A stretch of 29,080 nt of DNA from a virus: IMG/VR virus record IMGVR_UViG_3300025789_000113, positions 1 through 29,080 of that record; one strand, written 5' to 3'. The notes under the pieces were generated by a model. It was not told where the DNA came from, ran no database searches, and saw only the letters and a list, made by a program, of their open reading frames with translations. The position numbers were made by a program, and so were the translations under genes. Of this stretch, positions 1 to 29,080 are shown in pieces (the stretch's first letter is position 1; every line of letters begins with the position of its first letter).

Positions 1-1
1 G

Positions 2-2335
2 GACAATCAAAAGTCCAGCTTTGTTGACATGGTGATGGAGCGCAATACCGCCGCTACCATTACAACCAAGATTGGAAATCCTACCGAAAAGAAAATTTGG
101 AGTGACTTGATTGGCGTTGGATTTGATCGAATGCTCCGATCTTGGTCATCTTACAACTACAATGTTGAATTGGATGTTGAGGAAATGAGCCTGTACGGAA
201 AAGGTTTTGAGATTGCTGAAGACCGGGACGGGTGGCCTACAAAGAGTTTCCATAACTCCAATGTTCTTATTCCAGACAAGACATTTGCCGATCTTACCAA
301 CCTTGGCGAAATGTGCATCAAGCGTAGCTATACGCCGCTTGAGTTTTGGTTGAAGATTACGGGTGGAGAAGAAGATCCAGAGAAAGCACAGAAACACGCA
401 ACCGATATGGGTTGGAACTTTTGGGCTTGCGTGGATGCGCTCCGAATGTTCACCACAAACTACCGCAACACATATACCAACACCGAATGGTTAAGGGATG
501 TGGCAAGCGGTAACATGAACCTTTCCCGATTATATACGCTCCGCATTGAGTTGTATGAGCTTTACATTATGGAGTTCAACGGAAGCATTTCCAAGATGAT
601 GCTCCTCCAGAATTACGGTGGGCTTGTCCTTGGTTACAAAGAAAATGGACGCAAGGATCTTACGGAAGAAGAGTATCGTGACCAAACTGGATTCCTTTAT
701 TACAAAAAAGATTGGGTAGAAAAGGATGAAGATGGTTGGGAAGACATTATTGCTCCCATGACTGATTCAACTGGATCTGGAATCTGGCATGAGATTCAAG
801 GTCTTGCTGAAGCTATTTTTATCCAATGCCGAGCATACGACATCCATATGAACCGTTTCATGGATGCCGTTGATTGGAATACCCGTTTGATGTTCAAGGG
901 GGGTTCTGCTGAAGCAACCAAAAAGCTCAAGCAAATGGAATGGTCGCCAATGCTTATCTTGCCACAAGATGTTGATCCTGTTCAAGTTAATGTAAACATC
1001 CCATTCAATGAGGTTCTTTCTGGTATTCAATTCTACCAATCCGATCTCTATCGTGGAATTGGTGCTTACAACATTGGAATGGCAAATAAGGGTGGAAAGC
1101 AAAGGACAAAAGGAGAAGCACAACTTGATGCGGCTGAAAGTGCCAAACTTCAAGGCACACAGATTCGCCGCTTCAATGATAATCAAACCCGTTGGCTTAA
1201 ACTCCTGTACAAACGCATGAGCCGTACCACAAAAGGTGGATATGGTTATAAACTCAAACAGCGTTTTGTGGAGTTCATGGATGAAAATGGAGTTCCAAAA
1301 GAAGCATGGAAGTGGGAAAACATTGAGAATCTTGAGTCCAATATGCTTGCTGGTTCTGGTAGCCCGTCCTACAAGCTGATGGCGGCACAGCAGACTGTTT
1401 CTCTCACGGGCATGACCCCAATTAATGATGGTCAAGCCAATGCCATTGAAGATGCTATTGCCGCACTTAATGGTCGCCAGAATGTTACCCGTTATTTCCA
1501 GCACACCAAGGTTGATATTCCAGACGAGCAAGGAATCATCTCAATGGAAAACATTGGCATGACTGATCCTAAAGGAAACGCCGCAAACTTTAGGGTGTAT
1601 CCAGATCAGAACCATGTGGAACACTTTAAGGGTCACATCCAAGATGCCGCCGTATCAATGCAGGAGGCTCAAGCGGCCCTTCAAAGTGCCGGCGTTAATC
1701 CTCAAGCACCAACCAGGGGACAAGCCGCACAGGGAGTATCCGAGGAAGCTGTGGAGCTTATCAAGGACATCTACGCTTGCCTCATGCGCTTCAAGGGGCC
1801 ACATCTTGTTGCTCACCTTGGATTCATCCAAAAAGATCCTACCAAGAAGCAAATTGCTCAACAGTTTGGTCAGCAGATGCAACAGCTTCAGCGTGGAGTT
1901 GATGAGCTTGGTAGCCAGCTTGCACAGATTGAGAAAGCCAATCAGCAACAGCAGGGCCAGGGTGGAGATCAAGATCCTCACACGATCAAGTTGCAAGCAC
2001 TCGTCGCCAAAGAAGCAATCATTACCGATACATTGCAGAAAAAGGAAAACATCAAGCTGGCGGCAATGGCACAAAAAGCCCAACTCCATAATGTCAATGC
2101 AATGGAGAAGGCATCAACTGACCTCGCAACCAAGAGGGCAAAGGCCGCAAACGATATTCAGATTCACAGGGCAAAGGCTTCACACAATATGCAAGCCATG
2201 CAGGATCAACATGAACAGGAACTTGATCAGCAACAGCAGATGAACACTCAAGACATGGCGGCACAGCAAGCCGCCATTGCACAACAAGAACAAGTAACCA
2301 CGCAAAATCCCGGCATCGGGCAAGAAAATGGCTGA
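2..2335 (+). CDS. Portal protein, 5' end cut by window edge
   Basis: Likely portal: the dodecameric ring at one capsid vertex through which DNA is packaged and ejected. The frame is open to the first base of the window, so the ATG at 29 is probably internal and the real start lies upstream. About 777 codons are visible. The central part (roughly residues 330-400 from the ATG) has the Gly/Lys-rich stretch followed by a long helix with EAQLDAAESAKLQ, as in podovirus-type portals. The last 150 residues are Gln/Ala-rich and probably coiled coil, a usual portal tail. It is followed by a coiled-coil scaffold candidate and a capsid candidate, the standard head order, with the terminase expected just upstream. 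I see no specific signature that proves the family; size, fold-like composition and position carry the call. Confidence 0.8.
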   Translation, partial: DNQKSSFVDMVMERNTAATITTKIGNPTEKKIWSDLIGVGFDRMLRSWSSYNYNVELDVEEMSLYGKGFEIAEDRDGWPTKSFHNSNVLIPDKTFADLTNLGEMCIKRSYTPLEFWLKITGGEEDPEKAQKHATDMGWNFWACVDALRMFTTNYRNTYTNTEWLRDVASGNMNLSRLYTLRIELYELYIMEFNGSISKMMLLQNYGGLVLGYKENGRKDLTEEEYRDQTGFLYYKKDWVEKDEDGWEDIIAPMTDSTGSGIWHEIQGLAEAIFIQCRAYDIHMNRFMDAVDWNTRLMFKGGSAEATKKLKQMEWSPMLILPQDVDPVQVNVNIPFNEVLSGIQFYQSDLYRGIGAYNIGMANKGGKQRTKGEAQLDAAESAKLQGTQIRRFNDNQTRWLKLLYKRMSRTTKGGYGYKLKQRFVEFMDENGVPKEAWKWENIENLESNMLAGSGSPSYKLMAAQQTVSLTGMTPINDGQANAIEDAIAALNGRQNVTRYFQHTKVDIPDEQGIISMENIGMTDPKGNAANFRVYPDQNHVEHFKGHIQDAAVSMQEAQAALQSAGVNPQAPTRGQAAQGVSEEAVELIKDIYACLMRFKGPHLVAHLGFIQKDPTKKQIAQQFGQQMQQLQRGVDELGSQLAQIEKANQQQQGQGGDQDPHTIKLQALVAKEAIITDTLQKKENIKLAAMAQKAQLHNVNAMEKASTDLATKRAKAANDIQIHRAKASHNMQAMQDQHEQELDQQQQMNTQDMAAQQAAIAQQEQVTTQNPGIGQENG

Positions 2336-2612
2336 CATTAATGCAACAAACCTATCGGCATCTATTGTAAACGATAAAAGGTATTCGGATCTAAAGACGG
2401 CAATCTATGAGGAGTTGGTCAACAAAGACCACGCAACCGTAGTGGCTGTATTCAAGACACTCCAAGAGTGGGCAACGGAAGCAGAGGACAATAAATTTGA
2501 GAAGATTGAGAAACCTAAATCCGTTGTCTCAAGAGTAAGTACGCATGATTTGGATCTTGATCCCGATCTTGATGACTCACTTACTGAAGAAGAACTTTCT
2601 AGTCGCAAATAA
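2328..2612 (+). CDS. Small acidic hypothetical protein in head cluster
   Basis: A 94-residue protein I do not recognise. Its ATG overlaps the end of the portal gene by 8 bases, so translation is probably coupled to portal. The N-terminal 60 residues look helical. The C-terminus is strongly acidic (DLDLDPDLDDSLTEEE). Its place between portal and scaffold suggests a head-assembly helper, but no function can be read from the sequence. Confidence 0.75.
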   Translation: MADINATNLSASIVNDKRYSDLKTAIYEELVNKDHATVVAVFKTLQEWATEAEDNKFEKIEKPKSVVSRVSTHDLDLDPDLDDSLTEEELSSRK

Positions 2613-2636
2613 CAACCACAAACAACCACAAAAAAT

Positions 2637-3959
2637 ATGTCTGAAGCTGTAGCTGAACCCGCATTGAATCCTAATCTTACCGCCGCATCTGCCGCTGATA
2701 AAGCCGCAAGAGATGCCGCCGTAAAGCAAGCGGATAACTTTTTTAAAGGAAAGATGAGTGAAGCCCCCAAGGGTAATCCTTCCGATCTTTTCAAAAAGAT
2801 GGCAGAGAAGTTGAATCAAGATTCGTCTGCATTCCAAGAAAAAGTTGATGAGGAAAAGCAATCCAGACTTGAAGCGGAAGAAAACCGCCCGGAACCAGAA
2901 ATCAAATCCTCACTTGTTGATGATGAGAAAAAGCCGGGATATATCAAGTCCCTTAAACAGACCAATGAACAGCTTGCCAAGGAAGCCGCTGAACTCAAAT
3001 CAAAGGTTGCAGAATATGAGAAATCGAAAGCTGAAATCGAGGAGCTTCGGGCAAAGATTGATGACTCCGAAACCAAGAAACAAATGGAGAAACTCCAAAA
3101 AGAATTGGAGTTGGCAGTCAAGGAAAAGCAGGAGCGTGAAGAAGCCCTCACAAACGATCTTGAGCAACTTCGCAAGGCAAATGCATTCCTTAATCTCCCT
3201 GCTGATCCTGTCTTTAAGGAAAGCTATGATGCGCCAATCCTAAACGGCTACAACCAGGTCAAGATGATCATTGGTGATGATCAGACCAGTATTACCGAAT
3301 TTGAGAAAGCCGTTGCCGCATACGAAACATCACTCCGCACTCAAGATCCAAATGAACGAGTCAGACAGCGTGAGATTTCCAAACAGACTCTTAACTCCAT
3401 CTACGAGAATCTGTCTCCTATGGAACAGGCTAAATTCAATAGCACAGCTTACGATGTACTTGGCAAAGTCGAGGCTCGTATCAATGCTCTCCAAAATTGG
3501 GAAGTAACCAAGGCACAGGCTGATGAGGAGAAGGCTCGTCGTGCATCCATGAGCAAGAATCAGATCCAGAAGCGTTGGCAGGATGCATTCATCCAAGCCA
3601 AACAATCGCTTGAAGATTCCGTAAAATACCCGGAAGAGATCGCCAAGATCATTGCATCACAAAGCATTGATGATGACACAACGGAAGATGAGATGATTGC
3701 TGAAGCCGCATTGCGTGAGAATAGCAATTATGCGCCAGAACAAATTACCAGGGTGCTTCAACAGGGTGCTAAATTTAAGAAAGCCAAGGCATATAGTTTT
3801 GCTCTTGAAAAAGAAAATGCAGAACTAAAGGAAACGATTAAGAAAATGCGTGGCTCGTCTACTTCGGAGGGAAGCGTTGGGTCATCAGCTTCTGGCAAAT
3901 CAAGCCAATCAGAGGATCTAACTCCTGCTGGTCTTTTTGCTAAATTTAGAAATAGATAA
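2637..3959 (+). CDS. Putative capsid scaffolding protein
   Basis: A 440-residue, highly charged protein. The N-terminus is Ala-rich (residues 1-30). Residues about 105-190 form a long Glu/Lys/Leu coiled coil, further helices follow, and residues 390-430 are a Ser/Gly-rich linker before a short basic end (LFAKFRNR). Scaffolding proteins of tailed phages are helical, charged and placed directly before the major capsid gene, with a basic C-terminal helix that often binds the shell; all of this fits. I see no serine-protease motif, so a protease-scaffold fusion is not supported. The leader is AC-rich (repeated AACAACCACA) and lacks a Shine-Dalgarno site. Family not recognised by sequence. Confidence 0.7.
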   Translation: MSEAVAEPALNPNLTAASAADKAARDAAVKQADNFFKGKMSEAPKGNPSDLFKKMAEKLNQDSSAFQEKVDEEKQSRLEAEENRPEPEIKSSLVDDEKKPGYIKSLKQTNEQLAKEAAELKSKVAEYEKSKAEIEELRAKIDDSETKKQMEKLQKELELAVKEKQEREEALTNDLEQLRKANAFLNLPADPVFKESYDAPILNGYNQVKMIIGDDQTSITEFEKAVAAYETSLRTQDPNERVRQREISKQTLNSIYENLSPMEQAKFNSTAYDVLGKVEARINALQNWEVTKAQADEEKARRASMSKNQIQKRWQDAFIQAKQSLEDSVKYPEEIAKIIASQSIDDDTTEDEMIAEAALRENSNYAPEQITRVLQQGAKFKKAKAYSFALEKENAELKETIKKMRGSSTSEGSVGSSASGKSSQSEDLTPAGLFAKFRNR

Positions 3960-3973
3960 AAAAAGATATTGAC

Positions 3974-4000
3974 GAACGATTAGAAAACTAATAATCGTTC
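3974..4000 (+). terminator. Hairpin after scaffold gene, possible terminator
   Basis: A perfect 9-bp inverted repeat, GAACGATTA and TAATCGTTC, with a 9-base loop, begins 15 bases after the scaffold stop. It is AT-rich and not followed by a proper T-run (next bases AAATGACATTTT), so it may be a weak terminator, an RNA processing site or an operator rather than a strong intrinsic terminator. Confidence 0.35.
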
Positions 4001-4063
4001 AAATGACATTTTAACTGGAATGGTCGGTTTTAATTACCCGCCTGTTCTTGGTGGAAGCAACGA

Positions 4064-4155
4064 GTCTGATAGCGTCAGACATAAATAAACAGCGGGTTGC
4101 CAAGCTAAAGAATAGTAGGGTGGTTAAAAAAGACCCGCGATGGTTGCCAGATCGC
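4064..4155 (+). promoter_or_regulatory. Possible structured RNA leader of capsid gene
   Basis: Several pairings can be drawn. GTCTGA/TCAGAC (4064-4069 with 4075-4080) is a compact hairpin. GCGGGT (4092-4097) pairs with ACCCGC (4133-4138). GCGAT (4137-4141) pairs with ATCGC (4151-4155) and overlaps the previous stem by two bases, so the two are mutually exclusive. GGGTT (4094-4098) could instead pair with AACCC (4157-4161). Alternative pairings can mean a switch, but no known riboswitch class is recognised and short stems arise by chance. Confidence 0.3.
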
Positions 4156-4233
4156 AAACCCACAAACACTAATCATGTTTCAAGGGGGAGCGATCCTTTT
4201 TGGAACACAAACTAACCAAAACAACCTAAAATT

Positions 4234-5646
4234 ATGGCGGCTCAAAACGGCGTTACTTTTAGTTCGTGCCAAGATGTGGACACTCTGTTCCGCGAGGCTC
4301 GTACTTACTACAATCCCTTCTTCATCAAGAAGATGGCGATTAACTCAATTTACTATGGTCGTCTCGAAACCGAGACTTGGCCTCTGAATACTCTCCCGAC
4401 ACAGAAAGCATTCCGCTTCGGTCGTGGATGGTACAATCCCGATCAACCATGGGAGCAAGTTCAAAGCGGTCGTTGCATCCAGAATGCAGACGATGTTCAG
4501 TTTGAGACGATTGCTCACCCCGGAACTGAATCATATAGCTTCAGCCTCTTCACCAAGGCAATGCGCACCGATTGGTATCAGCTTACTGATTTCATGTATC
4601 GTCTCTTCCCTCAAGAGGAAATGGATCACATCATGGCTACCAATGTCAACATCACCAAAAATGTCCATGAGGAGTTCGCCCGTTCCAACTGGATCGGTGG
4701 TGCTGGTCACAAGTGGGTTCCTATCTCCAACGGTCAGAGCCTTGTCTCTTGCGTTGCTGAAGATGATCAGATGTTCATCGTTCAACCTTTCGAGGGAACG
4801 AACGAGGGTTCCTTCAACATGGGCTATGTCTATGTGAAGCTCCCTGCCAGCCAGCTTGGTAACATTGGCCTTCTCTCGCTTGATACGCTTGATGACATCC
4901 TCATCAACCTTCAGCGTGAGGATGATGCTTATCGTCTGGATGTTTCTGAAGCCGCCGGTCGCCCTCTTCTTGAGGTGATCGTTCCAGATGCCCGTGTCCT
5001 TCGTCAGCTTTGGCAGTATGCCAAGCAGAGTGGTGGATGGTGGGAGAGTGTTAGCGATTTCGATGACAAGCAACTTCAGTACTCCCTGGGTATTGATCGC
5101 GTGATCGGAAACTACGCTTTCTGCAACGACATCAACGGTGTTCGCCTTGCGGTGGATTGGGTGTACAATGCATCCCTTCCTACCTTCAATGTGAATGATC
5201 CGACCACATGGCCCCGTCTGGTGCGTGTGCTTCCATACTACCCGGTTACGACCGAGCTTGGTTGCAAATATGTCCAAAACCCCGCTTACAACAATGCGGA
5301 CTTCGGAATCACCAACCCTTGGGTTAACAAGGCAATGATCAAGTGGATCAGCCCGTCCCAGAGCGGAATCGGTGAAGCCCAGGGCATGACCCAAAACTAT
5401 GCCGGTGATTGGGAGTGGAAGAACCCGGATTGGGAGTGCAACATCAAGCGTGACCAAGGTTTCTTCTGGAACCAGTTCCGTATGGGTATGCAGTTCCAAG
5501 ATCCTACACTGATGCATTCAATCCTTCACAGGTTGAACACCAGCAGGCTCATCATCCCTGCTCCTTGCACCCTGTCTCCGAGCTACGCCCCGCAATACAC
5601 CCCGGATTGCTACGCTTGCTCCAGCACGGTTAGCCAGCCCATCTAA
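4234..5646 (+). CDS. Major capsid protein (probable)
   Basis: A 470-residue protein following the scaffold candidate, in the place and size range of an HK97-fold major capsid protein. It is rich in Trp, Tyr and Phe with an even, soluble composition. Its DNA is more GC-rich and uses C-ending codons (AAC, TTC, ATC, CGT) more than its neighbours, as expected for the most highly expressed virion gene. The C-terminus carries several Cys and Pro (last 30 residues). The start is the ATG after an A/C-rich leader; no Shine-Dalgarno site is present. The call rests on position, length and codon use; I do not recognise a family motif. Confidence 0.75.
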   Translation: MAAQNGVTFSSCQDVDTLFREARTYYNPFFIKKMAINSIYYGRLETETWPLNTLPTQKAFRFGRGWYNPDQPWEQVQSGRCIQNADDVQFETIAHPGTESYSFSLFTKAMRTDWYQLTDFMYRLFPQEEMDHIMATNVNITKNVHEEFARSNWIGGAGHKWVPISNGQSLVSCVAEDDQMFIVQPFEGTNEGSFNMGYVYVKLPASQLGNIGLLSLDTLDDILINLQREDDAYRLDVSEAAGRPLLEVIVPDARVLRQLWQYAKQSGGWWESVSDFDDKQLQYSLGIDRVIGNYAFCNDINGVRLAVDWVYNASLPTFNVNDPTTWPRLVRVLPYYPVTTELGCKYVQNPAYNNADFGITNPWVNKAMIKWISPSQSGIGEAQGMTQNYAGDWEWKNPDWECNIKRDQGFFWNQFRMGMQFQDPTLMHSILHRLNTSRLIIPAPCTLSPSYAPQYTPDCYACSSTVSQPI

Positions 5647-10078: not shown

Positions 10079-10380
10079 ACTTCATTAAGGGCATTATAAG
10101 CGAAAGCAATGGGACTCCATCAAGTCTCCGAATCTCCTTTCTTACTTGGGAGATTATTCTTGTTTGTGCCTTTACTGTTCTTATTGGATACACCGTGATT
10201 TCTCATCACTTCCATCCAGAGAATCAATTTAATCCTTCATCAGCATTGACTTGGGTGGCATCCATCTTTGCCGCAAATCGTGGATCAAAACTGATCCAGA
10301 AACCATTTGAGTCTGACTCCATTGATAATCAAGACGAATCAATAGAACCGACTCACCCAATTCAGACCAAGGATCTATGA
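10075..10380 (+). CDS. Putative holin-like membrane protein
   Basis: A 101-residue protein whose ATG is chosen from the ATGA overlap with the upstream stop. It has one clear membrane helix (about residues 21-43), a weaker amphipathic segment (about 57-70, SALTWVASIFAANRG) and a polar acidic tail. The N-terminal SNGTPSSLR before the helix resembles a pattern I know from small phage holin-like proteins. It lies directly before the endolysin, again with ATGA overlap. Holins form inner-membrane lesions that let the endolysin reach the wall. Best holin candidate in the window, not proven. Confidence 0.55.
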   Translation: MNFIKGIISESNGTPSSLRISFLTWEIILVCAFTVLIGYTVISHHFHPENQFNPSSALTWVASIFAANRGSKLIQKPFESDSIDNQDESIEPTHPIQTKDL

Positions 10381-10934
10381 CAATCAGCGACATCATTAGT
10401 GCGGCTAAAACCAAATTCCCCGAAAGGTTTTGTTTTTGGTTGAACTTCATTTGCGAGGCTGAAGCCACAATTGGACAGGATGGAAATATCTTGAGGGAAG
10501 ATGATCACGATGGGGCCGGGATCACATTCTGTGGATTGACCCAAAGGGATGATCAGCTTCCAGACAATCCGACTCCACAATGGGTTGCAGATAAGTATCA
10601 TGATGGCTATTGGGCCGAATCTAGGGCCGATCTTCTTCCCAAAGGAGTAGGAGAAGAGGTTGCCAACATTGCCGTGAATGAGGGGCTAGGAACCGCTTTT
10701 AAGATCCTCCAACAATCAATCAATGCTTTGGGAGTTCACATCAATGTAGATGGCAAGATTGGTTCTCAAACTGAAGATGCGGCATTTAAGGAAGATGCTC
10801 ACCAACTGGCACTCAAGATTGCTGAATACAATGATCAGCATTATAAAGATATTGCTGACAGAAGGCCCGACTTGCGTAATAATCTGCGAGGCTGGTTGAA
10901 TCGTGACCAGTTAATGGTCAAAACCTTTGCATAA
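10377..10934 (+). CDS. Endolysin, GH108-type muramidase
   Basis: A 185-residue protein that would cut peptidoglycan glycan strands at the end of infection. Features fit glycosyl hydrolase family 108 with a C-terminal peptidoglycan-binding part: a Glu pair in the first helix (Glu27 and Glu29, in CEAEA), a DGAGITFCGLT segment at 45-55 matching the family's GG-T-FGIT region, YHDGYW at 74-79, then AVNEGLGTAFKILQQ (99-113) and VDGKIGSQT (124-132), typical of the binding domain. The usual Glu-x-Gly-Gly is altered, since residues after the Glu are Ala-Glu-Ala, so the catalytic residue needs care. No signal peptide, hence holin-dependent. Start from ATGA overlap. Confidence 0.8.
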   Translation: MTISDIISAAKTKFPERFCFWLNFICEAEATIGQDGNILREDDHDGAGITFCGLTQRDDQLPDNPTPQWVADKYHDGYWAESRADLLPKGVGEEVANIAVNEGLGTAFKILQQSINALGVHINVDGKIGSQTEDAAFKEDAHQLALKIAEYNDQHYKDIADRRPDLRNNLRGWLNRDQLMVKTFA

Positions 10935-18440: not shown

Positions 18441-18441
18441 T

Positions 18442-18930
18442 ATGAAAGAGTTATCACAAGTTTCTTCAATGGACAAATTGGAGCTAGAAGTTGGCAATGC
18501 ACCTCAAGTTGAATGTCCTTTGGAGCATTTTTTTACTCCAGAAATCTATACCAGAAAGATATTTATGCCAGCTGGCACAATTGTGGTTTCGCTTAAACAT
18601 AAAACAACTCATCCTTTTTTTATACTAAAAGGAAAAGTTGCCGTTTTAAAAATAACATCTGATGGGTCTTTTGAGCGTGAAGCACTATATGTTGCTGGAG
18701 ATATGGGCATTACTAGACCGGGAACAAAACGCTTTCTTTACAACATTGAAGATACTGTTTGGGTTACTTGTCACTCTAATCCAGAAAATATTGAAGATCC
18801 CGATAAAATTGTGATAAAACTTTCAGAACCTAATGAAAACCCGCTAATTGATACATCTAAACCAGAGTTCAGTATGTGGAAAAAAGAAGTAAGTCCAAGT
18901 TTAATCCATAAAGAACTTCAACTCGCATGA
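18442..18930 (+). CDS. Cupin-fold protein with eroded metal site
   Basis: A 162-residue protein; the ATG one base after the upstream stop is chosen over an earlier in-frame ATG. Residues 25-112 read as a cupin barrel: GTIVVSLKHKTTHPFFILKG (45-64) matches motif 1 in place, but the His-x-His is spread (His53, His57) and the Glu is missing; RPGTKRFLYN (92-101) matches motif 2 with Phe in place of His. So a metal enzyme is unlikely and a binding or structural barrel is more probable. The gene is AT-rich compared with its flanks. Cupin-like barrels occur near podovirus tail genes; a virion-bound sugar or ligand binder is possible. Confidence 0.7.
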   Translation: MKELSQVSSMDKLELEVGNAPQVECPLEHFFTPEIYTRKIFMPAGTIVVSLKHKTTHPFFILKGKVAVLKITSDGSFEREALYVAGDMGITRPGTKRFLYNIEDTVWVTCHSNPENIEDPDKIVIKLSEPNENPLIDTSKPEFSMWKKEVSPSLIHKELQLA

Positions 18931-21067: not shown

Positions 21068-24000
21068 ATGCCATTTGATATCAACGGCGCAAGAAAAGCC
21101 GGTTATTCTGATGAGCAGATTTCTGAATTTCTCTCGTCGAACAACCCTAGCTTTGATGTGTCTGGAGCGCAAAAGGCTGGGTACACGCTGGATGATATAG
21201 CTGGAACTTTGGCACAACCAAAACAACAGCAAGATACGCAACTTCCCACGCCAGAGCAGACAGGTAAGGTTATTAATCTTCCTCCCATTCCAGAAATCAC
21301 CCAAGCAAAGCCAATGGGTTTTATGGAACAAGCAGGAAGATTCATGTCTCCATTGCTTGGCCCTACGGAAGCGCAAAAAATTGAAGAAGCTGTTCCTTTT
21401 GGTAAAACCGCAACAGGAGAAACCAAGTATGAATACAAGCCATTAGCAAGTCGATTAGAGCAGGAGCAGGGGATTTTTACACCTTTTATTACCACTCCAC
21501 AACTTCAGTCAACTCCAACAGATACAACCGCTGAAGCAATAGGAAAGGGAGCTTTCAATGTGGGAGCAGGGGTGTTGGGATCTTTTATGAGTCCTGGTGG
21601 CGTGCTTCTTGGCGGGGTTCCAAAAGAATTAGAAAGTGCCGCTGAAGGAGTAAAGCAAATTGGCAGGGGGGCGGCTGGATTGTTTGCTGGTCAAATGCTT
21701 GGAGCAATTCCTGGCCAAGTGCAGGAAGCAATTAATCCTAATTTGCCATTGCAGGAGAGAATTCAAGGAGGATTGGGTGCTGTTGTTGGATTGGGATTTG
21801 GAGGTCTTGCCGCCAAACACGCAATAATGGGAGAAAAACGTCCATCGCCCGAAAATATACCCGGCCCCGCTCCAGAGGTTGCTCCATCTACCGTCCCTGG
21901 CGTTGACTCAAAAGAAGCGGCAATTATTTCCAAAGCGGATGATTTGCATGAGGTTCCCTCGCCCCCCAGTGAGGTTACCGGCCCTACGATTAATATCCCT
22001 GCCGCAACTTCAGAGGAATTAAACCGCGCAAAGATTTCCGATCTTGTTGCCCAACAACTGGAGCATGAGGAAGGATCGCCAGAGCATACTGCCATTCAGC
22101 AACAGATTGATGCTTTACAGAAACCCGCTGAAAAAACTCAATTTCCTGATCTAAATGAATGGACTGAAAATCAGAAGCAATATTTACAGCAATTAGAACA
22201 ACAGAAACCCGCTGAAGAAATTTCTAATGCTCCTGAAAATGATCTAGATAAACAGCTTCAAGATCTTACTGATGAACAAAATAGGCTTGTCATAGATGAA
22301 CTACCAAAATATCCGGAAGGAAGCATTGGAAGGAGACAAGTTCAAGACAGAATTGATGCAATACGCTTACAGCAAGTTGATCTTAATAAACAAAGGGAAC
22401 TTGTAATTTCAGAGGAAACCAAACCCGCTGAAGCCCCTGCTGAAGCAAAACCTAAAGAAGAAAATGCCGTTCAAGTCGAAAAAACAGGAGAAGTGGGCGT
22501 TCGCAACGCACCAACCGTGGGCGAAGGAGTGGGCGCAGAAAACAAACCAGAAGTCCCTGCCACAGAAGGTGAAGAAAAGCCCAAAGAAGAAGTAGCTCCA
22601 ATAACAGAAAACAGCAGAACTACAAATCGTGATTATAGTGGCTACCCAAAAGGAACCCAAGTAGAAATTGTTTCAAGAAGCAAAGATCCTTTATCTACGG
22701 ATGTAAAAATAAAGTATCCCGATGGCAAAATTGATTCTTTTCCAGAGGCGTGGCTTAAAAAACCAAAGACATCTGCAACAAAGCCAAAAGAAACCCTTCC
22801 AAGTCTTGTTAAAACAAGGGGAAGAGATGCAGTAAATGATCTTCTTAATGAGTGGAACGAAGCTGAATTAAGTCCAGATGGTAAATACATTTTAGGTGTT
22901 GTTGATCCAAGATCATCAATGAAGCCAGAGCGCATTCCTGTAAGGGAGTTCCTTGATTGGTTGCAAGATAAGGAATCAACATCAAAAGTAGAAGTAGGGC
23001 CAGAAGCCGACGCTACTACCCCAACTATTGAGACTACTGGCGAAGGACAGTTATTCCGAGAGGATGCTCTTCCATTTAATCTTGCTGGAGAAGAGTTGCC
23101 GCCAGAACCTGAAAAGCCAACTGTAGGCACAGAGGAAGAGCAACAGCTTCCTATGGGCGAAACTCCAAAGCCAACGGAGCCAGAGAAGCCATCAAACCCA
23201 TACAAGGATCTTCTTAATAAAGTAGTAACCAGCATCAAGACTCATTCAGAATTTGCAAACGAAGCTGAAAAAGTAGCAAAGAAAACGCGCAATAAATTTC
23301 TCCAAGAATCGGTAGACAATTACCGGGACGCAATGGAAATCGGAGCGGACATGGAGTCAGAGTTCGAGAAGTTGCTTGCCGATGTTGAGCGTGAAGCCAA
23401 TTACCATGATCAAGGAATAAAACCATCAGAGCGAGGATTGCCAAAAAGCAGATATAGAAAACCCCAATACTTTGGAGGCAAAAATGGAGATGAAGTAATT
23501 CGATATCTTCAAGAGAACAAAATCCTTCCAAAGAAAGCATGGGAAAAGAAAATTCGTGAAAGCGGTAGGCAAGTTACCGGCGGGGAATATGATGATATGC
23601 CAGAGATCCCCCAAAAGCATTCCAAGACTCTTTATGGAACTAATGGGGAAGGCCAGGTAATTGATGATGCATTGACAGGATTACATAGTGCCGGCTTGGG
23701 ATTGAATATAGAAACTGTTCCAGAACTTTGGCAGTACATCAAAGATGCTTCCGATAGTGCATTAAAAGAAGAAAAGGAAACTACGGAACAATCCCGGATT
23801 GAAAAGAAAATTGAAACCGAAAGGGAGAAGATGCGGAAGTTGGCTCAAAAAGATCCAGAGAAATACGCTTCCGAAATGGATCAAGACTTGAGGGACTACT
23901 TCAATGCTCGCCGTGGAGATACAGGAGGATTCCTTGAATTTCCAGATTCAGTAAAAGAAGCGGCAACCAATTTCGGCAAAGCTATTTATAAGGCTGGAAT

Positions 24001-27000
24001 GACATTTCGTGATTGGTCACGCGAAATGATTTCTCGTCTTGGAAATGGAGTTCGTGATTTCCTGCGACAAATCTGGAATGCGTGGAGTTCAACAGGGAGA
24101 TCTGGAGGAATTGGTCGAATTCCTGGTGAAGATGAAGCGGCATTGCGCGCAAGAATTGAAAGGGAAAAGTACGGCCCCCCTTCTCCCCAAGAGGCATACG
24201 CAAATAAACTTTACGATGCTCTGACAAAAACTCATGGAAGTCCCGCTACGGAAGAGGAACTGTCTCGCGGACTGTCCAGCAAGTTCCCCGGCATTACATC
24301 CCGCGAGATTACGGATCTTTACAACAAAGCATCTGGAAAAGCGGAGGCAAGACCATCCGTTACTGCTCCAGAAACGGGCGGCGAGGGTCGCACGACCGGC
24401 CTTAAAAGGGCCACAGTTTCACAAGAAAGACTCGCCCGTGGGTTGGAGGAATTAAATCCAGAAGAAAGACCCGGAGCCGAGGAAGCCGTTGCTAATGCCG
24501 TTGAAAAAAACAAAGACACAACAGCTTCATCAAACCTTGTTGCAAATATTTTAGAAGGAGGCAAGCGAAACATCAGTCATGATGATGCCGCTTTATTGCT
24601 GGCAGAAAGAAATAGGGTTCTTGGAGAACAGGAAAAGTGGCAAAAGATTTATCTTGATGAAAAAACAAATGATGTTGAAAGGGCAAATGCTGAAAACAAA
24701 TTAAACGAAATAGAATCTCAACTTGATCGACTTGATAAGGCCCAAAAAATTGTTGGCACTCAATGGAGTGATATTGGTCGTTTATATCAACGATTGATTG
24801 CTGAAGATAATTCAATTCAAGCAATACAGACAAGGTGGAGAAAGGCCAAGGGGTCTTCTTTGTCTCCAGAAGAAAATATTCAGATTTCCGATCTTTCCAA
24901 AAGACTTACAGATTTGCAGAAAAAGTATGAGGAACTCCAAAATAAGATAAACGAAACAAAATCTGATGGCGTAAAGGAGACTTTGGAAAAGACCATAAAG
25001 GATTTGGAAGACAAGTTGGCTAAATCACAAAAGGAAAAGAAGCCAACATCTGAAAAACAACCAAAGGAAGGGCCAAAGTATAGCGACAAAATCATCAACA
25101 AGATTAGCTCTTTGGCTGAACAGGCTAGGGAAAGAAAAGCCAAAAGAAGAGCAGAAGGACGGTTTATGTCGGGATATGATCCCGCTGAATTTGCTGACGA
25201 TGTAATAATTGCATCTGAATATATTGCTCATGGAGTAAAAAATGCCGCCGATTTTGCAATAAAGATAAAAAATGAACTTGGCGATGTAACTAAAGAATAC
25301 ATTGATAAGCTATATAAAGCGGCAAATGAAAAAATAAAACAGTTGGATAAGTCCGAATCATCCGATGATGTGAGGGCCAGGGTAAAAGCTGAAGCAGTTG
25401 CCGGCGATGAATTGTCCCAAAAAAGCATTTATGATTTAGTGGTAGCGCATCTTCAAGAAGGATTACATGAAGAGAACGAGGTCATGAATGCCGTTCTTGA
25501 TGATGTAAAAGAAGCATATCCAGAAGCAACAATAAGGGATGTTCGCAGAGCATACACCAATTACGGTAAATATAAATTTCCAAGCAAAGACGAAATCCTT
25601 ACACGCGCCAGGGAATTGCGAACTCTTTCTAGGCTACAGGAAAGCATTGACCGATTAAATGAAGGATTGAGGCCGCTTAAAACAGGATTACAGCGCGATA
25701 AGGCAATTCAAGAAATTAGGGAAAAGCAAAAGCAGTTAAATGATTTACTGGCAAAAGCAAACGAACCTACTCGCGAACAGTTTCTTGCTTCAAGGTCTGA
25801 TGCTGCAAAAACTAGATTGCGAAATGCAATTGAAGATTTAGACAAGCAGTTGAGGACGGGAGAAAGACCCACTCCAAGGGAAAGAATTGAAGAAGACCCG
25901 GAGGTTGAGCAATTGCGTTCCGAAAAAGAGGCAATGCAGAGACTCCGAAATGAGATTGACAGGCAAGAGGCTCCAAAGGATTCGCCAGAGGAAAAGGAAA
26001 ATGAGCGTTTGCGTAAACTGTATGATAAGCAAATTGCCGATCTTGATGAAAAATTAAGAGGCATTGAAAAGCCAAAGCCAGAAAAGCCAACATTTGAGCA
26101 AAGCAGGGAAAATGAACAAAAGATGGCAGAGCGTGATGCAATGCGTGAAAAGCTCAAGGAGATTGAAAAAGAAGAAGCAGATCGAAAAAAACCATCCTCG
26201 GAACAAGCGGAAATTGATCGCATTCAAAAAGCAATTGATGATGTCAATGACCGCATTGCAAAAGGTGAAAAAATTGCACCTACTCCCAAAAAAGAACCTT
26301 TGACTGAATATGCAAGGAGACTGCGTGAAGATTTGGAAAAAGCGAGAAAGCAATACAAAAGAGTCACAGGCAAAGAACCAAAGACTCCAGAGCAACGCTA
26401 TAATGAAGCCAGACAAAAAGCCTGGAAGAAGAAAATTGATGAATTAAATGATAGAATAAAAAGAGGTGATTTCAAGGAAGCTCCAAAAAAACCAACCCCA
26501 AAATTAAATGAGGAGTCGAGAAAAGTATTCTCGGAACTTGAAAAAACAAAACAAGAGGCAAAAGAAGCTGAACAAAAGTTAGCTTTTGAAAACAGGACTC
26601 CTGTACAGAAATTGATAGATAGGGTTATTAAGGCTCCGTGGCATTTCCTAACCGCAATAAAGGTTTTGGGGCATGGAACGGTAGGAATGCTTACTCATGC
26701 TGGAGGTGTGCTGTGGAGGCCGACAAGGGCTTTGATATATTGGAAAAATTTCCTGCGCCAATTCCCTTTGTGGTTAAGTCCAAAGTATCATGAGAAGATT
26801 ATTTATGATTTGATTCACGACAAGGATTTCCAAAAATGGAAAGATGCCGGCGCAAGTATTGACCCAAGGGAAGAGTATACAGATTATGGAATGTATGCCA
26901 AATGGATGGGTAAATTTGCGGCTGGAGGCAAGCGTGGATTCGATGCTCTAAACCTTGTGCGACTTGAATTAAACAAAAAAGATTGGGAGAATGTTTCGGA

Positions 27001-27979
27001 TGATATAAAGGCCAATCCAGAACAAGCTGAAGAAACCAGAAAATATATTGCCGCATTAAACAATAAAGCAACTGGGGCATTGCCAAAGGGATATTCGGCT
27101 GGAAGACAAATAGCTAGAAACCCATTGATGGATTGGCTTTTCTTTGCCCCAAAATTATACGCAACCAGATTTTCGCGTGTTTTGTTTGATCCTGTTAGAA
27201 CTATCAAAACATTTGGTGATTGGTCAAATTCCACACCAGCAGAAAAATACATTGCTACCAAGAGATTGAAAAATGCCGGTGAGTTTGCGGCTACATACAT
27301 TGGGGCATTAATGATAAACCAGGCTATTTTGAGTGCTACCGGAAGCAAGCAACAGGTTAACTTTACCGATCCTTCAAAAACCGATTGGTTAAAAATGAAG
27401 ATTGGGAATAAAGTTGTGATGGCAGATGGTGGATTGCTTGATCCAATTAGGCTTATTGGTCGTATCGTGTATGGAGATTTGATTAAACCGAGAACGGAAA
27501 GGGAGGTTTACTTGAAGGGGAATCGTTACCAGCAAGCCATGAAAGACTTAACGGAGTATGTCAGAGGAAAAATGAACCCAACATTGGGCATAATTACTGA
27601 TGTATCTACTGGAACTGATTTTCAAGGAAGACCATTGCCTGGGCCGTTGGCAAGGGGAGAAAAGGCGAAATATGCCGATCAGCCTCAATACACATGGAAA
27701 GAATGGTTGCTGGAGCAGGGGCCGATTCCTTTGTCTGGAGCGACAAAAGATGTATATGAATCCATGAGAGAAAAAGGATTAAGTGATGTACAGGCTCAAG
27801 ACATATTAAAGGGCGCGGCTTTGACTGCCGTTGGAATGACCGGGGCACACGCACAAGAAGATTACTCCCTATTGCCAAAAACACCTCCAAAATTAAGAAA
27901 TAAAGGAGCATCATCAAATCCTTTTGGATCTACTGACAGTTCAACCAAGTCACAAAGGAACCCATTTGGAAGTTTTTAA
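21068..27979 (+). CDS. Giant polyvalent-type internal virion protein, 2303 aa
   Basis: The largest gene, about a quarter of the window. In order: two copies of an FDxxGAxKAGY repeat (residues 3-25 and 29-50); a Gly/Ala-rich hydrophobic region (about 155-255) that may insert in membranes; a long Glu/Pro/Lys-rich section; a helical module seen twice (about 961-1006 and 1374-1420, pattern G-x4-DF/W...LG...); a SKDEI...LKTGLQR module (about 1491-1545); four 67-residue repeats (1588-1856); a hydrophobic stretch (about 1860-1910); and a C-terminal region with FFAPKLYATRFSRVLF and TDWLKMKIGNKVVMADGG. The later modules resemble regions I know from large polyvalent proteins of phages and plasmids. No methylase, ADP-ribosyltransferase or lysozyme motif is seen. 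Most likely packaged and injected with DNA. Confidence 0.75.
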   Translation: MPFDINGARKAGYSDEQISEFLSSNNPSFDVSGAQKAGYTLDDIAGTLAQPKQQQDTQLPTPEQTGKVINLPPIPEITQAKPMGFMEQAGRFMSPLLGPTEAQKIEEAVPFGKTATGETKYEYKPLASRLEQEQGIFTPFITTPQLQSTPTDTTAEAIGKGAFNVGAGVLGSFMSPGGVLLGGVPKELESAAEGVKQIGRGAAGLFAGQMLGAIPGQVQEAINPNLPLQERIQGGLGAVVGLGFGGLAAKHAIMGEKRPSPENIPGPAPEVAPSTVPGVDSKEAAIISKADDLHEVPSPPSEVTGPTINIPAATSEELNRAKISDLVAQQLEHEEGSPEHTAIQQQIDALQKPAEKTQFPDLNEWTENQKQYLQQLEQQKPAEEISNAPENDLDKQLQDLTDEQNRLVIDELPKYPEGSIGRRQVQDRIDAIRLQQVDLNKQRELVISEETKPAEAPAEAKPKEENAVQVEKTGEVGVRNAPTVGEGVGAENKPEVPATEGEEKPKEEVAPITENSRTTNRDYSGYPKGTQVEIVSRSKDPLSTDVKIKYPDGKIDSFPEAWLKKPKTSATKPKETLPSLVKTRGRDAVNDLLNEWNEAELSPDGKYILGVVDPRSSMKPERIPVREFLDWLQDKESTSKVEVGPEADATTPTIETTGEGQLFREDALPFNLAGEELPPEPEKPTVGTEEEQQLPMGETPKPTEPEKPSNPYKDLLNKVVTSIKTHSEFANEAEKVAKKTRNKFLQESVDNYRDAMEIGADMESEFEKLLADVEREANYHDQGIKPSERGLPKSRYRKPQYFGGKNGDEVIRYLQENKILPKKAWEKKIRESGRQVTGGEYDDMPEIPQKHSKTLYGTNGEGQVIDDALTGLHSAGLGLNIETVPELWQYIKDASDSALKEEKETTEQSRIEKKIETEREKMRKLAQKDPEKYASEMDQDLRDYFNARRGDTGGFLEFPDSVKEAATNFGKAIYKAGMTFRDWSREMISRLGNGVRDFLRQIWNAWSSTGRSGGIGRIPGEDEAALRARIEREKYGPPSPQEAYANKLYDALTKTHGSPATEEELSRGLSSKFPGITSREITDLYNKASGKAEARPSVTAPETGGEGRTTGLKRATVSQERLARGLEELNPEERPGAEEAVANAVEKNKDTTASSNLVANILEGGKRNISHDDAALLLAERNRVLGEQEKWQKIYLDEKTNDVERANAENKLNEIESQLDRLDKAQKIVGTQWSDIGRLYQRLIAEDNSIQAIQTRWRKAKGSSLSPEENIQISDLSKRLTDLQKKYEELQNKINETKSDGVKETLEKTIKDLEDKLAKSQKEKKPTSEKQPKEGPKYSDKIINKISSLAEQARERKAKRRAEGRFMSGYDPAEFADDVIIASEYIAHGVKNAADFAIKIKNELGDVTKEYIDKLYKAANEKIKQLDKSESSDDVRARVKAEAVAGDELSQKSIYDLVVAHLQEGLHEENEVMNAVLDDVKEAYPEATIRDVRRAYTNYGKYKFPSKDEILTRARELRTLSRLQESIDRLNEGLRPLKTGLQRDKAIQEIREKQKQLNDLLAKANEPTREQFLASRSDAAKTRLRNAIEDLDKQLRTGERPTPRERIEEDPEVEQLRSEKEAMQRLRNEIDRQEAPKDSPEEKENERLRKLYDKQIADLDEKLRGIEKPKPEKPTFEQSRENEQKMAERDAMREKLKEIEKEEADRKKPSSEQAEIDRIQKAIDDVNDRIAKGEKIAPTPKKEPLTEYARRLREDLEKARKQYKRVTGKEPKTPEQRYNEARQKAWKKKIDELNDRIKRGDFKEAPKKPTPKLNEESRKVFSELEKTKQEAKEAEQKLAFENRTPVQKLIDRVIKAPWHFLTAIKVLGHGTVGMLTHAGGVLWRPTRALIYWKNFLRQFPLWLSPKYHEKIIYDLIHDKDFQKWKDAGASIDPREEYTDYGMYAKWMGKFAAGGKRGFDALNLVRLELNKKDWENVSDDIKANPEQAEETRKYIAALNNKATGALPKGYSAGRQIARNPLMDWLFFAPKLYATRFSRVLFDPVRTIKTFGDWSNSTPAEKYIATKRLKNAGEFAATYIGALMINQAILSATGSKQQVNFTDPSKTDWLKMKIGNKVVMADGGLLDPIRLIGRIVYGDLIKPRTEREVYLKGNRYQQAMKDLTEYVRGKMNPTLGIITDVSTGTDFQGRPLPGPLARGEKAKYADQPQYTWKEWLLEQGPIPLSGATKDVYESMREKGLSDVQAQDILKGAALTAVGMTGAHAQEDYSLLPKTPPKLRNKGASSNPFGSTDSSTKSQRNPFGSF
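25829..26633 (+). repeat. Four tandem 67-residue repeats in giant protein
   Basis: The anchors IEDLDKQLRTGERP (residue 1588), IADLDEKLRGIEKP (1656), IDDVNDRIAKGEKI (1723) and IDELNDRIKRGDFK (1790) are spaced 68, 67 and 67 residues. Each is followed by a Pro-rich linker and a second charged helix. The units would form helical hairpins. DNA identity between units is low, so the array is old. Confidence 0.75.
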
Positions 27980-28032
27980 CTCTTGCCTTACTTGCCGGTT
28001 TCCGAAAGGATTGCCGCTTAACCAACCACGCC

Positions 28033-28341
28033 ATGAGCAAAAAATACATCCTGCCTCCTTCCCTTAAATATCCCTTTGAGCAGTCAGAGTTCCCCGGTGA
28101 TCTGAATCTACGAGAGATTCGTGAACAGGGAGAGAAGAACAAGTTGCCAGAGGTTAGCTTTTATCAAGCTATCGTTATCTCCCTTCTGGAGCAGAGGAAC
28201 TACTTTGTTGTCGAAACCCTCCGCTATGCCAAGCAGTATGGTCAACTTCCTCCGCAACAGGAGGAGACTCCAGAACCAGAAGAGAAGAAGGACTTCCCTA
28301 CGCTGACGCTAATCCACCGTTTCCATAAGAAGTACGAGTAA
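28033..28341 (+). CDS. Small hypothetical protein, charged
   Basis: A 102-residue soluble protein. The middle (about 25-70) is helical, followed by a Pro/Glu/Lys-rich linker (QQEETPEPEEKK) and a short basic end. It starts after a TTAACCAACCACGCC leader without a Shine-Dalgarno site and ends 3 bases before the glycosyltransferase GTG. It does not resemble the virion proteins upstream. Function unknown. Confidence 0.65.
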   Translation: MSKKYILPPSLKYPFEQSEFPGDLNLREIREQGEKNKLPEVSFYQAIVISLLEQRNYFVVETLRYAKQYGQLPPQQEETPEPEEKKDFPTLTLIHRFHKKYE

Positions 28342-28344
28342 GTC

Positions 28345-29080
28345 GTGGCTACATATCTCAACCTCGGAAGGTACGGAGATGTATGCTCATTCCTTCCTGT
28401 TCTCCAAAATGAGTACAACGAGACAGGCACAAAGCCTAGTCTGATCATATCCAAGGACTACGCTGACATTCTGGATGGAGTCAGCTATGTGGAACCAATT
28501 GTCTACGATGGCCCTTTTGAAGACATTGCTGGAGCATTGGATTATGCCAAGACGCTAGGGCATACAGTAACCACAACCCAAGTTGTCGGGATTACGGATG
28601 TTGTGGTAAGCCAAGTCTATGGGAACCATCATGGCCCTGCCATTATCTGTGACTCTTTCCAACAAGATGCTTGGAGGTTGGCTAACAAGCTGGATCTATG
28701 GCCCCGCCAATTGCCTTTGGTATTCGATAGACGGGACAAGAAAAGGGAAAAGAGACTGTACAGGGGCATTCCAAAGACAAAGCCTTGGATCGTTGTTTCC
28801 TCCGGGGGAAACTCCTCACCATTTCCATACAATGATTTGCTATGGGAGATCCTAAAGAACTGCCTTCCAGAGTTCCACATCATTGACCTAGCTGAAATCA
28901 AAGCTGAAAAGTTCTATGATATTTTAGGTATCATGGATCACCCCAACACGGCGCATCTCATCCTCACCGATAGCGGCCCTATACACCTCGCATACGCCAC
29001 TACAAAGCCTGTTCATGCAATCGTGACAGATAGACCATCTCTGTGGCATGGGACGGCTTGGAGACCATTCTACGCTTCCT
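28345..29080 (+). CDS. GT9/heptosyltransferase-like glycosyltransferase, 3' cut
   Basis: An open frame of 245 codons running off the window. The start is GTG at 28345: an in-frame stop lies 6 bases upstream and the next Met is about 195 codons in, so no other start is reasonable. The N-terminus YLNLGRYGDVCSFLPVL matches the nucleotide-sugar transferase opening (Gly-x-x-Gly-Asp, then a Leu-Pro helix) of the ADP-heptose LPS heptosyltransferase family. WIVVSSGGNSSPFPY begins the second domain, and LILTDSGPIHLAYATTKPV is the family's sugar-nucleotide binding segment. A GT-B enzyme in a virion gene block probably modifies phage or host surface sugars. Not expected among strict structural genes, so it may open another module. 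Confidence 0.75.
   Translation, partial: MATYLNLGRYGDVCSFLPVLQNEYNETGTKPSLIISKDYADILDGVSYVEPIVYDGPFEDIAGALDYAKTLGHTVTTTQVVGITDVVVSQVYGNHHGPAIICDSFQQDAWRLANKLDLWPRQLPLVFDRRDKKREKRLYRGIPKTKPWIVVSSGGNSSPFPYNDLLWEILKNCLPEFHIIDLAEIKAEKFYDILGIMDHPNTAHLILTDSGPIHLAYATTKPVHAIVTDRPSLWHGTAWRPFYAS

What the first reader, a model, noticed from the sequence alone, without database searches (positions are those of the whole stretch)
1..29080. GCWGC is almost missing from 29 kb
Reading the whole window for GCAGC and GCTGC, I found one site, GCTGC at 25802-25806. From base composition (roughly mid-40s percent GC, estimated by eye) some 30-40 would be expected. GCCGC and GCGGC are common, so the loss is specific to a central A or T. 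Ala-Ala pairs are nearly always written GCC-GCN, while single Ala codons often use GCT or GCA, so codon choice seems shaped to avoid the site. Selection by a host (or prophage-borne) restriction enzyme with this specificity is the plain explanation. The single site sits inside the giant protein gene. A few sites may have been missed by eye.
Basis: partly seen in the sequence, partly recalled or inferred. Interest (0 to 1): 0.75.

Follow-up and report, generated by a model that had tools for sequence, protein, structure and literature searches.

The report
Phage genome stripped of restriction sites
An uncultured virus of bacteria has almost no copies of several short DNA words of the kind that bacterial restriction enzymes cut, and its relatives have each lost a different set, as if each genome recorded the enzymes that its hosts carry.

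Summary
In detail: GCAGC 0, GCTGC 1 (25802-25806), where Markov models expect 39-53 and synonymous-codon shuffles average 52-62 (0 of 500 reach it in either design). But GCWGC is one of many lost words: CTNAG and GGWCC are 0; CASTG, ACGT, TCAGG/CCTGA, RCATGY, YGGCCR and WCCGGW 1-4; GATC, GANTC, GCSGC and YCATGR are not depleted. The window belongs to a 51.4-kb uncultured phage (record G001) with one GCWGC in all. Among 48 group records (window included; capsid-position protein 91-100% identical), GGWCC and RCATGY are avoided in 48, GCWGC in 30, with at least 6 changes on the tree; CCWGG, ACGT, CCGG, GCGC, CGCG and CASTG also switch. Two sisters 93% identical: none of 12 GCWGC sites of one is kept in the other (11 lost by synonymous change only), but 13 of 16 GCSGC are. 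Selection by host Type II restriction enzymes, changing with host repertoires, is the best explanation, but no host was found and no cognate enzyme shown. Relatives carry differing anti-restriction genes (C5 and PF01555 methyltransferases, Mom, ArdC). A known strategy in a broad, fast-switching form.

The parts
1..29080 (.). Region depleted of GCWGC (1), CTNAG (0), GGWCC (0), CASTG (3), ACGT (4), CCTGA/TCAGG (3), RCATGY (1), YGGCCR (1), WCCGGW (2), AAGCTT (0). It matches record G001 at 100% over 12191 and 12851 bp and at 99.2% over 3939 bp.
25802..25806 (+). The only GCWGC site (GCTGC), codons GCT-GCA (Ala-Ala); the same site is the only one in G001
21068..27979 (+). 2303-aa ORF that holds the single site; function not assigned
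   Evidence: no family search was run on it
29..2335 (+). ORF cut by the window start (871 aa in G001); portal candidate by position only
   Evidence: no Pfam or PHROG match
2637..3959 (+). 440-aa ORF, scaffold candidate by position only
   Evidence: no Pfam or PHROG match
4234..5646 (+). 470-aa ORF, capsid candidate by position only; used to find the relatives (91-100% and about 49-50% identity groups)
   Evidence: no Pfam or PHROG match
10377..10934 (+). Endolysin (glycosyl hydrolase 108 just over its cut-off, plus peptidoglycan-binding domain)
16880..17428 (+). GIY-YIG homing endonuclease
18406..18930 (+). Short tail fibre-like protein (phrog_12032)

Best explanation
The window is part of a phage whose genome has been purged of the recognition sites of its hosts' Type II restriction enzymes. 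Each incoming genome with an unmethylated GCWGC, CTNAG, GGWCC and so on risks being cut, so changes that remove the sites, mostly synonymous, are favoured until almost none remain (here Ala GCA/GCT become GCC/GCG before a codon that starts with GC). Some enzymes seem present in all hosts of the group (GGWCC and RCATGY avoided throughout group A), while others come and go, so each phage lineage carries its own list of forbidden words, which changes within a few percent of sequence divergence. Shown: the depletion, its word specificity, its independence of codon and amino-acid choice, its symmetry between strands, its switching between close relatives, and varying anti-restriction genes in relatives. 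Inferred: that host restriction enzymes are the selecting agent, and that the direction in the sister pairs is loss.
For: Depletion against Markov and codon-shuffle nulls (codon shuffles on 17 further records, 100 each). Hexamer edges like those of enzymes, in G001: ACATGC 1 of 26, ACATGT 0 of 12, GCATGC 0 of 14 but ACATGA 24 of 28; AGCGCC 0 of 16 but AGCGCA 26 of 21; AAGCTT 0 of 25 but AAGCTC 30 of 32; GGATCC 1 of 25 and AGATCT 3 of 20 but AGATCC 66 of 45. Both strands depleted although the 26 ORFs used all read one way. Tree of 48 records: GCWGC avoided (O/E<0.2) in 30, tolerated (>0.5) in 16, 2 between, at least 6 changes; CGCG 7, GCGC 7, CASTG 4, CCWGG 4, ACGT 4, CCGG 3, CCTGA 3, CTNAG 2, GTAC 1; GGWCC and RCATGY avoided in 48 of 48; GATC and GANTC tolerated in 48 of 48. 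Sister pairs: G031 to L044 (92.8% nt) GCWGC 12 sites, 0 kept, 11 by synonymous change only, against GCSGC 13 of 16 and GATC 27 of 32 kept; G026 to L035 (87.8%) CTNAG 11 to 0, ACGT 10 to 0; G001 to G002 (95.0%) CCWGG 10, 0 kept. T7 shows the same kind of signal (GATC 6/140, CCWGG 2/83). [quoted passage not shown] no PF00589 integrase in 15 of 15 records.
Against: No host, hence no cognate enzyme or methylome. An asymmetric word (TCAGG/CCTGA) is strongly avoided in several lineages, whereas PMC6286503 reports avoidance almost only for orthodox Type II sites. G002 carries Mom and ArdC-domain genes and still avoids GCWGC, CTNAG, CASTG and CCWGG. One group B locus, L071, has 12 GGWCC of 28 expected, so that avoidance is not universal beyond group A. 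Summed over all 64 palindromic hexamers, O/E in the window (0.48) is no lower than in T7 (0.47), and lambda is at 0.56. Markov expectations come from the same sequence, and pairs were chosen after the states were seen.
Confidence: 0.88

Rival explanations
1. A base-composition or codon-usage artefact: the word is rare because the codons and amino acids that make it are rare.
For: Many GCWGC would arise from an Ala codon followed by GC, so codon preference could matter.
Against: Codon shuffles that keep protein and codon usage average 52-62 sites, never fewer than 38; GCA and GCT are the commonest Ala codons except before GCN; relatives with similar proteins have normal counts.
Confidence: 0.01
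2. Mutation rather than selection: methylation at the site makes 5-methylcytosine, which decays to T and erodes the motif.
For: 8 of 10 CCWGG sites of G001 that are lost in G002 show a C to T change of the second C (or its complement), and 7 of 10 ACGT losses between G026 and L035 are ACGT to ATGT.
Against: At lost GCWGC sites over four pairs only 21 of 67 base changes are C>T or G>A; 30 are a central A/T to G/C change. Complete loss at 5-15% divergence while most control sites are kept needs more than a mild bias.
Confidence: 0.04
3. The phage copies the word usage of its host genome, which itself avoids these words, without direct cutting of phage DNA.
For: Avoidance of Type II sites has been shown in many prokaryote genomes (PMC4687349, start of abstract in the listing).
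Against: Near-exclusion is said to be more frequent in phages than in prokaryote genomes (PMC6286503 discussion), and the states differ between sisters. No host genome was available to compare.
Confidence: 0.04
4. Avoidance of CRISPR target motifs, or of an RNA-level signal such as an RNA-cutting toxin.
For: Motif depletion tied to CRISPR has been studied in phages (PMC4246573, title and start of abstract in the listing).
Against: The depleted words are mostly palindromic, many at once, and depleted on both strands of a block of ORFs that read one way.
Confidence: 0.02

Closest known systems
Restriction-site avoidance in lytic phages, as in phage T7
   Same: Near-elimination of short palindromic words while similar words stay; T7 measured here by the same script: GATC 6 of 140 expected, CCWGG 2 of 83. 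Overall depletion of palindromic hexamers is alike: 0.47 in T7, 0.48 in the window.
   Different: T7 shows 2 four- or five-base palindromes at the threshold used; the window and 12 long relatives show 4 to 9 each (CTSAG and CTWAG counted apart, and CCSGG counted beside CCGG). Palindromic hexamers with no copy: 19 of 64 in T7, 23-36 of 64 in the 13. The sets differ between close relatives.
Survey of recognition-site avoidance, Rusinov et al. 2018 (PMC6286503)
   Same: Complete or almost complete elimination is reported for about one tenth of viral genomes, far more in non-temperate phages, and mostly for orthodox Type II sites (abstract).
   Different: In what I read of it (abstract, four passages, part 1 of 2 of the discussion) I saw no account of avoidance states switching between close relatives, and asymmetric sites are said to be rarely avoided.
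Phage-borne cytosine-5 DNA methyltransferases (PF00145; phrog_363)
   Same: G001, not the window, encodes a 240-aa protein matching PF00145 (1.5e-31), phrog_363 (1.3e-61) and M.HhaI (1.7e-11).
   Different: Four relatives carry versions whose first 225 bases are 76-84% identical and the rest 57-58%, which suggests exchange of the recognition half, though stronger constraint on the first part is possible; specificity unknown.

Membership tests
Restriction-site avoidance (anti-restriction by site loss) | Site nearly eliminated relative to composition | tested here: met
   GCWGC 1 vs 38.5-52.7 expected
Restriction-site avoidance (anti-restriction by site loss) | Not explained by codon or amino-acid use | tested here: met
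   0 of 500 shuffles at or below the observed count in each of two designs
Restriction-site avoidance (anti-restriction by site loss) | Specific to the word, with similar control words kept | tested here: met
   GCSGC, YCATGR, GATC, GANTC not depleted; hexamer tables
Restriction-site avoidance (anti-restriction by site loss) | Acts on both DNA strands | tested here: met
   + strand: GCAGC 0 of 29.2 and GCTGC 1 of 23.5 expected; CTCAG, CTGAG, CACTG, CAGTG, CCTGA and TCAGG all 0-3 of 17-23
Restriction-site avoidance (anti-restriction by site loss) | Host encodes a cognate restriction-modification system | not testable with these tools
   No host found
Restriction-site avoidance (anti-restriction by site loss) | Non-temperate lifestyle (trend of the class) | tested here: inconclusive
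   No PF00589 integrase in 15 of 15 records; other integrases and repressors not searched
Cytosine-5 DNA methyltransferase (relative G001, not in the window) | Family profile and catalytic motifs | tested here: met
   PF00145 1.5e-31; PCQ and ENS motifs read by eye; M.HhaI alignment
Cytosine-5 DNA methyltransferase (relative G001, not in the window) | Methylates RCCGGY (proposed here) | not testable with these tools
   Only indirect: RCCGGY 55 of 39 expected in G001 against 13 of 269 summed over 29 other representatives

The most novel reading that the evidence does not exclude
Each phage genome in this group is a readable barcode of the restriction repertoire of its hosts: sites are purged genome-wide, mostly by synonymous change, within a few percent of divergence when hosts gain an enzyme, and drift back when the enzyme is lost or when the phage gains a methyltransferase for that site. 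In this reading the exchangeable recognition half of the phage C5 methyltransferase and the list of forbidden words change together, and G001's enzyme protects RCCGGY, which among the 30 representatives compared only this phage keeps. Such barcodes would let host restriction repertoires be read from uncultured virus sequence.
Probability: 0.5. Interest if true: 0.75.

Novelty: new member of a known kind. Interest (0 to 1): 0.55.

Why it matters
Site avoidance is known, but how quickly it is gained and lost is hard to see in isolates. Here dozens of related natural genomes differ in which words they avoid, some pairs at 93-95% identity, so the rate, direction and completeness of genome-wide site purging could be measured directly, and host restriction repertoires might be inferred for phages whose hosts are unknown.

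Tried and rejected
Composition and codon explanations were tested and rejected. Deamination was tested on the base changes and rejected for GCWGC, but not for CCWGG or ACGT. Host search: the capsid-position alignment A1 and the terminase alignment A4 against the GTDB contigs gave 53 and 23 pattern stretches, none a relative; tblastn of the portal-position protein, terminase and capsid-position protein against phage records gave no match; a DUF7227 protein matched 185 phage records, 166 of Pseudomonas phages and some of cyanophages, and did not point to a host. Gene content: 139 representatives (of 309 clusters of predicted proteins of 80-999 aa from 19 records) were scanned; 25 of 35 Pfam and 25 of 51 NCBIfam families were shown, and I saw no host marker among those shown.

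The idea that a private tolerance always reflects a phage methyltransferase was weakened: G039 alone keeps AAGCTT (27 of 31 expected; 29 of 29 other representatives avoid it) but has no match to PF00145, PF01555, PF02086, PF05869 or PF02384, only a shortened C5 remnant; and G005, G006 and G017 carry C5 methyltransferases without any private tolerance. The idea that Mom frees the genome from avoidance was rejected for G002. Whether tolerated sites are evenly spread was looked at in five records: the longest stretch without GCWGC exceeded permutations in G039 (none of 5000) and G010 (0.0054), not clearly in G017, G018 or G015.

Paper searches aimed at avoidance in uncultured phages or its differences among close relatives showed nothing on point in the titles and abstract openings listed (0, 7 of 7, 15 of 77, 20 of 47 and 1 of 1 papers); that is a statement about those listings only. 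Structure prediction, fold search, covariance-model searches and the PADLOC library were not used.
Full report
WHAT WAS CHECKED. The window (29,080 bp, G+C 43.5%) holds no GCAGC and one GCTGC, at 25802, while GCCGC occurs 54 times and GCGGC 29 times. Expected GCWGC is 52.3, 52.7 and 38.5 under order-1, order-2 and maximal-order Markov models. Shuffling synonymous codons within each of 26 ORFs picked (9173 codons, 94.6% of the window) gives 61.9 sites on average (sd 5.5); shuffling while keeping the base after each codon gives 52.0 (sd 5.0); 0 of 500 shuffles reach the observed value in either case, and GCSGC is over-represented (83 vs 36.5 and 46.0).

GCWGC IS ONE OF MANY LOST WORDS. With the within-gene codon shuffle as null, CTNAG is 0 vs 74.6, GGWCC 0 vs 26.5, CASTG 3 vs 32.0, ACGT 4 vs 61.3, CCTGA/TCAGG 3 vs 57.2, YGGCCR 1 vs 19.3, WCCGGW 2 vs 21.1, SAGCTS 1 vs 25.7, AAGCTT 0 vs 11.6, RCATGY 1 vs 11.1. 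Less extreme: ACCTG 8 vs 44.6, CCCAG 11 vs 45.7, TGCA 113 vs 159.0. Not depleted: GATC 137 vs 132.1, GANTC 113 vs 91.8, CCGG 59 vs 59.1, YCATGR 26 vs 24.0, CAWTG 143 vs 76.0. Depletions of TCGA, GTAC and CCWGG shrink to z -1.2 to -1.9 when the following base is kept, so I do not count them. The edges of the depleted sets are as sharp as enzyme specificities: in G001, ACATGC 1 of 26, ACATGT 0 of 12, GCATGC 0 of 14 against ACATGA 24 of 28, CCATGA 59 of 36 and GCATGA 30 of 30; AGCGCC 0 of 16, AGCGCT 0 of 8, GGCGCC 0 of 7 against AGCGCA 26 of 21; AAGCTT 0 of 25 against AAGCTC 30 of 32. Many of these words are, from memory, sites of named enzymes (GGWCC AvaII, CTNAG DdeI, RCATGY NspI, RGCGCY HaeII, YGGCCR EaeI, AAGCTT HindIII); those names come from no call. 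Both strands are depleted although the 26 ORFs used all read one way (GCAGC 0 of 29.2 and GCTGC 1 of 23.5; TCAGG 0 of 22.8 and CCTGA 3 of 19.0), which speaks for double-stranded DNA as the target.

WHAT CARRIES IT. The window is a whole virus record. Another record, G001 (locus L002, 51,550 bp), matches it at 100% over 12,191 and 12,851 bp and at 99.2% over 3,939 bp and has an exact 127-bp terminal repeat, so although its ends are classed linear it looks like a complete, circularly closed assembly of about 51.4 kb, with one GCWGC in all, the same one. Gene content: endolysin, GIY-YIG endonuclease and tail-fibre-like protein in the window; terminase large and small subunit-like, exonuclease, RecT-like, replication initiation-like and C5 methyltransferase in G001. 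The portal, scaffold and capsid labels used here are by position only; those proteins have no Pfam or PHROG match. Three proteins have no match in the phage collection. No PF00589 integrase in 15 of 15 long records.

RELATIVES SWITCH. The capsid-position protein brought 80 loci (best 80 of 196): 53 at 91-100% identity (group A) and 27 at 49-50% (group B). Motifs were counted on all of them. For the later work I used 59 records: 54 of group A including the window, and 5 of group B; five of these were fetched slightly short of full length (G017, G032, G033, G036, G040). Of the 54, 48 in which each of three proteins is covered to at least 70% went into a tree; 6 were dropped (G006, G015, G018, L006, L011, L050). 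On it, with O/E under 0.2 as avoided and over 0.5 as tolerated: GGWCC and RCATGY avoided in 48 of 48; GATC, GANTC and GCSGC tolerated in 48 of 48; GCWGC avoided in 30, tolerated in 16, 2 between, at least 6 changes; fewest changes for CGCG 7, GCGC 7, CASTG 4, CCWGG 4, ACGT 4, CCGG 3, CCTGA 3, CTNAG 2, GTAC 1, records between the two thresholds not counted. The records are related and some are near duplicates, so counts of records are not independent; the changes on the tree are the better measure. No group B locus is as low in GCWGC as the avoiders (lowest 20 of 45, L068); GGWCC is low in group B too, except L071 with 12 of 28. The five group B records avoid RGATCY, and the three long ones also GTAC (that output was cut in the middle, for other records). 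Codon shuffles on 17 further records agree with the states, for example GCWGC 43 vs 48 in G007, 45 vs 45 in L023, 84 vs 102 in G039, against 1 vs 93 in G021, 0 vs 23 in L044 and 2 vs 108 in G023.

SISTER PAIRS. Pairs were chosen after the states were known. In codon alignments of up to seven genes: G031 to L044 (92.8% nt, 97.1% aa identity), 12 GCWGC sites, 0 kept, 11 lost by synonymous change only, 0 new; controls GCSGC 13 of 16 kept with 11 new, GATC 27 of 32, GANTC 19 of 22, CAWTG 18 of 22, TTSAA 16 of 23. G026 to L035 (87.8%): CTNAG 11, 0 kept, ACGT 10, 0 kept, GCGC 8, 0 kept with 1 new; controls GCSGC 15 of 19, GATC 27 of 35, GANTC 10 of 18, CAWTG 13 of 22, TTSAA 15 of 25. G009 to G004 (89.4%): GCWGC 7, 0 kept; in the other direction CCWGG 4 and CCCAG 7, 0 kept. 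G010 to G012 (84.9%): GCWGC 14, 0 kept. G001 to G002 (95.0%): CCWGG 10, 0 kept with 1 new; RCCGGY 4, 1 kept. G039 to the window (77.8%): GCWGC 19, 0 kept; CASTG 8, 0 kept with 2 new. Direction is not proven. In L044, 7 of the 12 sites read GCSGC, which fits purging there. Of 67 base differences at lost GCWGC sites over four pairs, 30 are central A/T to G/C and 21 are C>T or G>A, so methylcytosine decay is not the main cause for this word; 8 of 10 CCWGG and 7 of 10 ACGT losses are C>T at one C or its complement, so a mutational share is open there.

ANTI-RESTRICTION GENES VARY. C5 methyltransferase (PF00145) in 4 of 44 records (G001, G005, G006, G017); PF01555 in 4 of 44 (G010 and G026 over the whole profile, perhaps CcrM-like since one scanned representative matches NF050803; G030 and G035 over half of it); Mom in 2 of 57 (G002, G003); ArdC N-terminal domain in 5 of 57 (G002, G003, G019, G021, G032); PF02086, PF05869 and PF02384 in 0 of 32 each. 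Many records are fragments, so absences in them mean little. Among the four C5 enzymes the first 225 bases are 76-84% identical and the rest 57-58%, as if the recognition half had been exchanged, although stronger constraint on the first part could also do this; G039 keeps a version shortened in the middle. Over 30 representatives, only G001 keeps RCCGGY (55 of 39 expected; others 13 of 269 in sum, 23 of 23 testable others under 0.35), which would fit an RCCGGY-specific phage methyltransferase. Against reading too much into that: only G039 keeps AAGCTT (27 of 31; others 26 of 510) without a recognised methyltransferase, weaker private tolerances appear in G007, G010, G031, G039 and L032, and the other three C5 carriers show none.

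COMPARISON. By the same script, T7 avoids GATC (6 of 140) and CCWGG (2 of 83), while lambda (48,000 bp used), P60 (46,000) and Ma-LMM01 (50,000 of 162,109) avoid no 4- or 5-base palindrome at this threshold; the window and 12 long relatives avoid 4 to 9 (CTSAG and CTWAG counted apart, CCSGG beside CCGG). Palindromic hexamers without a copy: 19, 2, 13 and 0 of 64 in the four, 23-36 in the 13. Summed over all palindromic hexamers, however, O/E is 0.47 in T7 and 0.56 in lambda against 0.28-0.51 here, so the overall hexamer deficit is not out of the ordinary for the window (0.48). Four phages are a small benchmark. Rusinov et al. 2018 (PMC6286503; abstract, four passages and part 1 of 2 of the discussion read) report complete or almost complete elimination in about one tenth of viral genomes, much more in non-temperate phages, and mostly for orthodox Type II sites. 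The present case is therefore the same strategy; the number of short words, the avoidance of an asymmetric word on both strands and the rapid switching are what stand out.

VERDICT. The finding is real and the restriction explanation is very likely, though no host enzyme was shown. It should be read not as a missing GCWGC but as a lineage-specific list of forbidden words that turns over quickly.

Noticed in passing
L126:11646-18675 (record G015): 14 of the 18 GCWGC sites of this 35-kb record lie in this stretch, and 10 of its 13 CCGG sites between 10 and 20 kb: perhaps a segment imported from a phage with another avoidance list. A run-length permutation on GCNGC sites did not support clustering (0.34), so it is only a lead.
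   Followed up: partly
G039:C1:37819-38241 (within L107): A C5 methyltransferase shortened in the middle but still an open frame, keeping its start and end and lacking the PC motif region, next to the exonuclease-like gene.
   Followed up: partly
window; records G001, G023, G044: The asymmetric word TCAGG/CCTGA is avoided on both strands in some lineages (window 3 of 41-42, G001 10 of 81, G023 11 of 82, G044 10 of 97) and not in others, although asymmetric sites are said to be rarely avoided.
   Followed up: partly
L083:12978-13051, L095:18928-19193, L107:10702-11241: tRNA-Gln (TTG) in 8 of 9 long group A records, with tRNA-Asn in 4 and tRNA-Trp in 4; none found in 3 of 3 long group B records (scanned in pieces).
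   Followed up: no
L083:15358-16326:-: A dimethylarginine dimethylaminohydrolase-like protein (PF19420, 8.9e-12) in a phage genome.
   Followed up: no
window:28345-29079: ORF cut by the window end; no Pfam or PHROG match, and the full 505-aa version in G001 has none either. It looked to me like a glycosyltransferase, from memory only.
   Followed up: no
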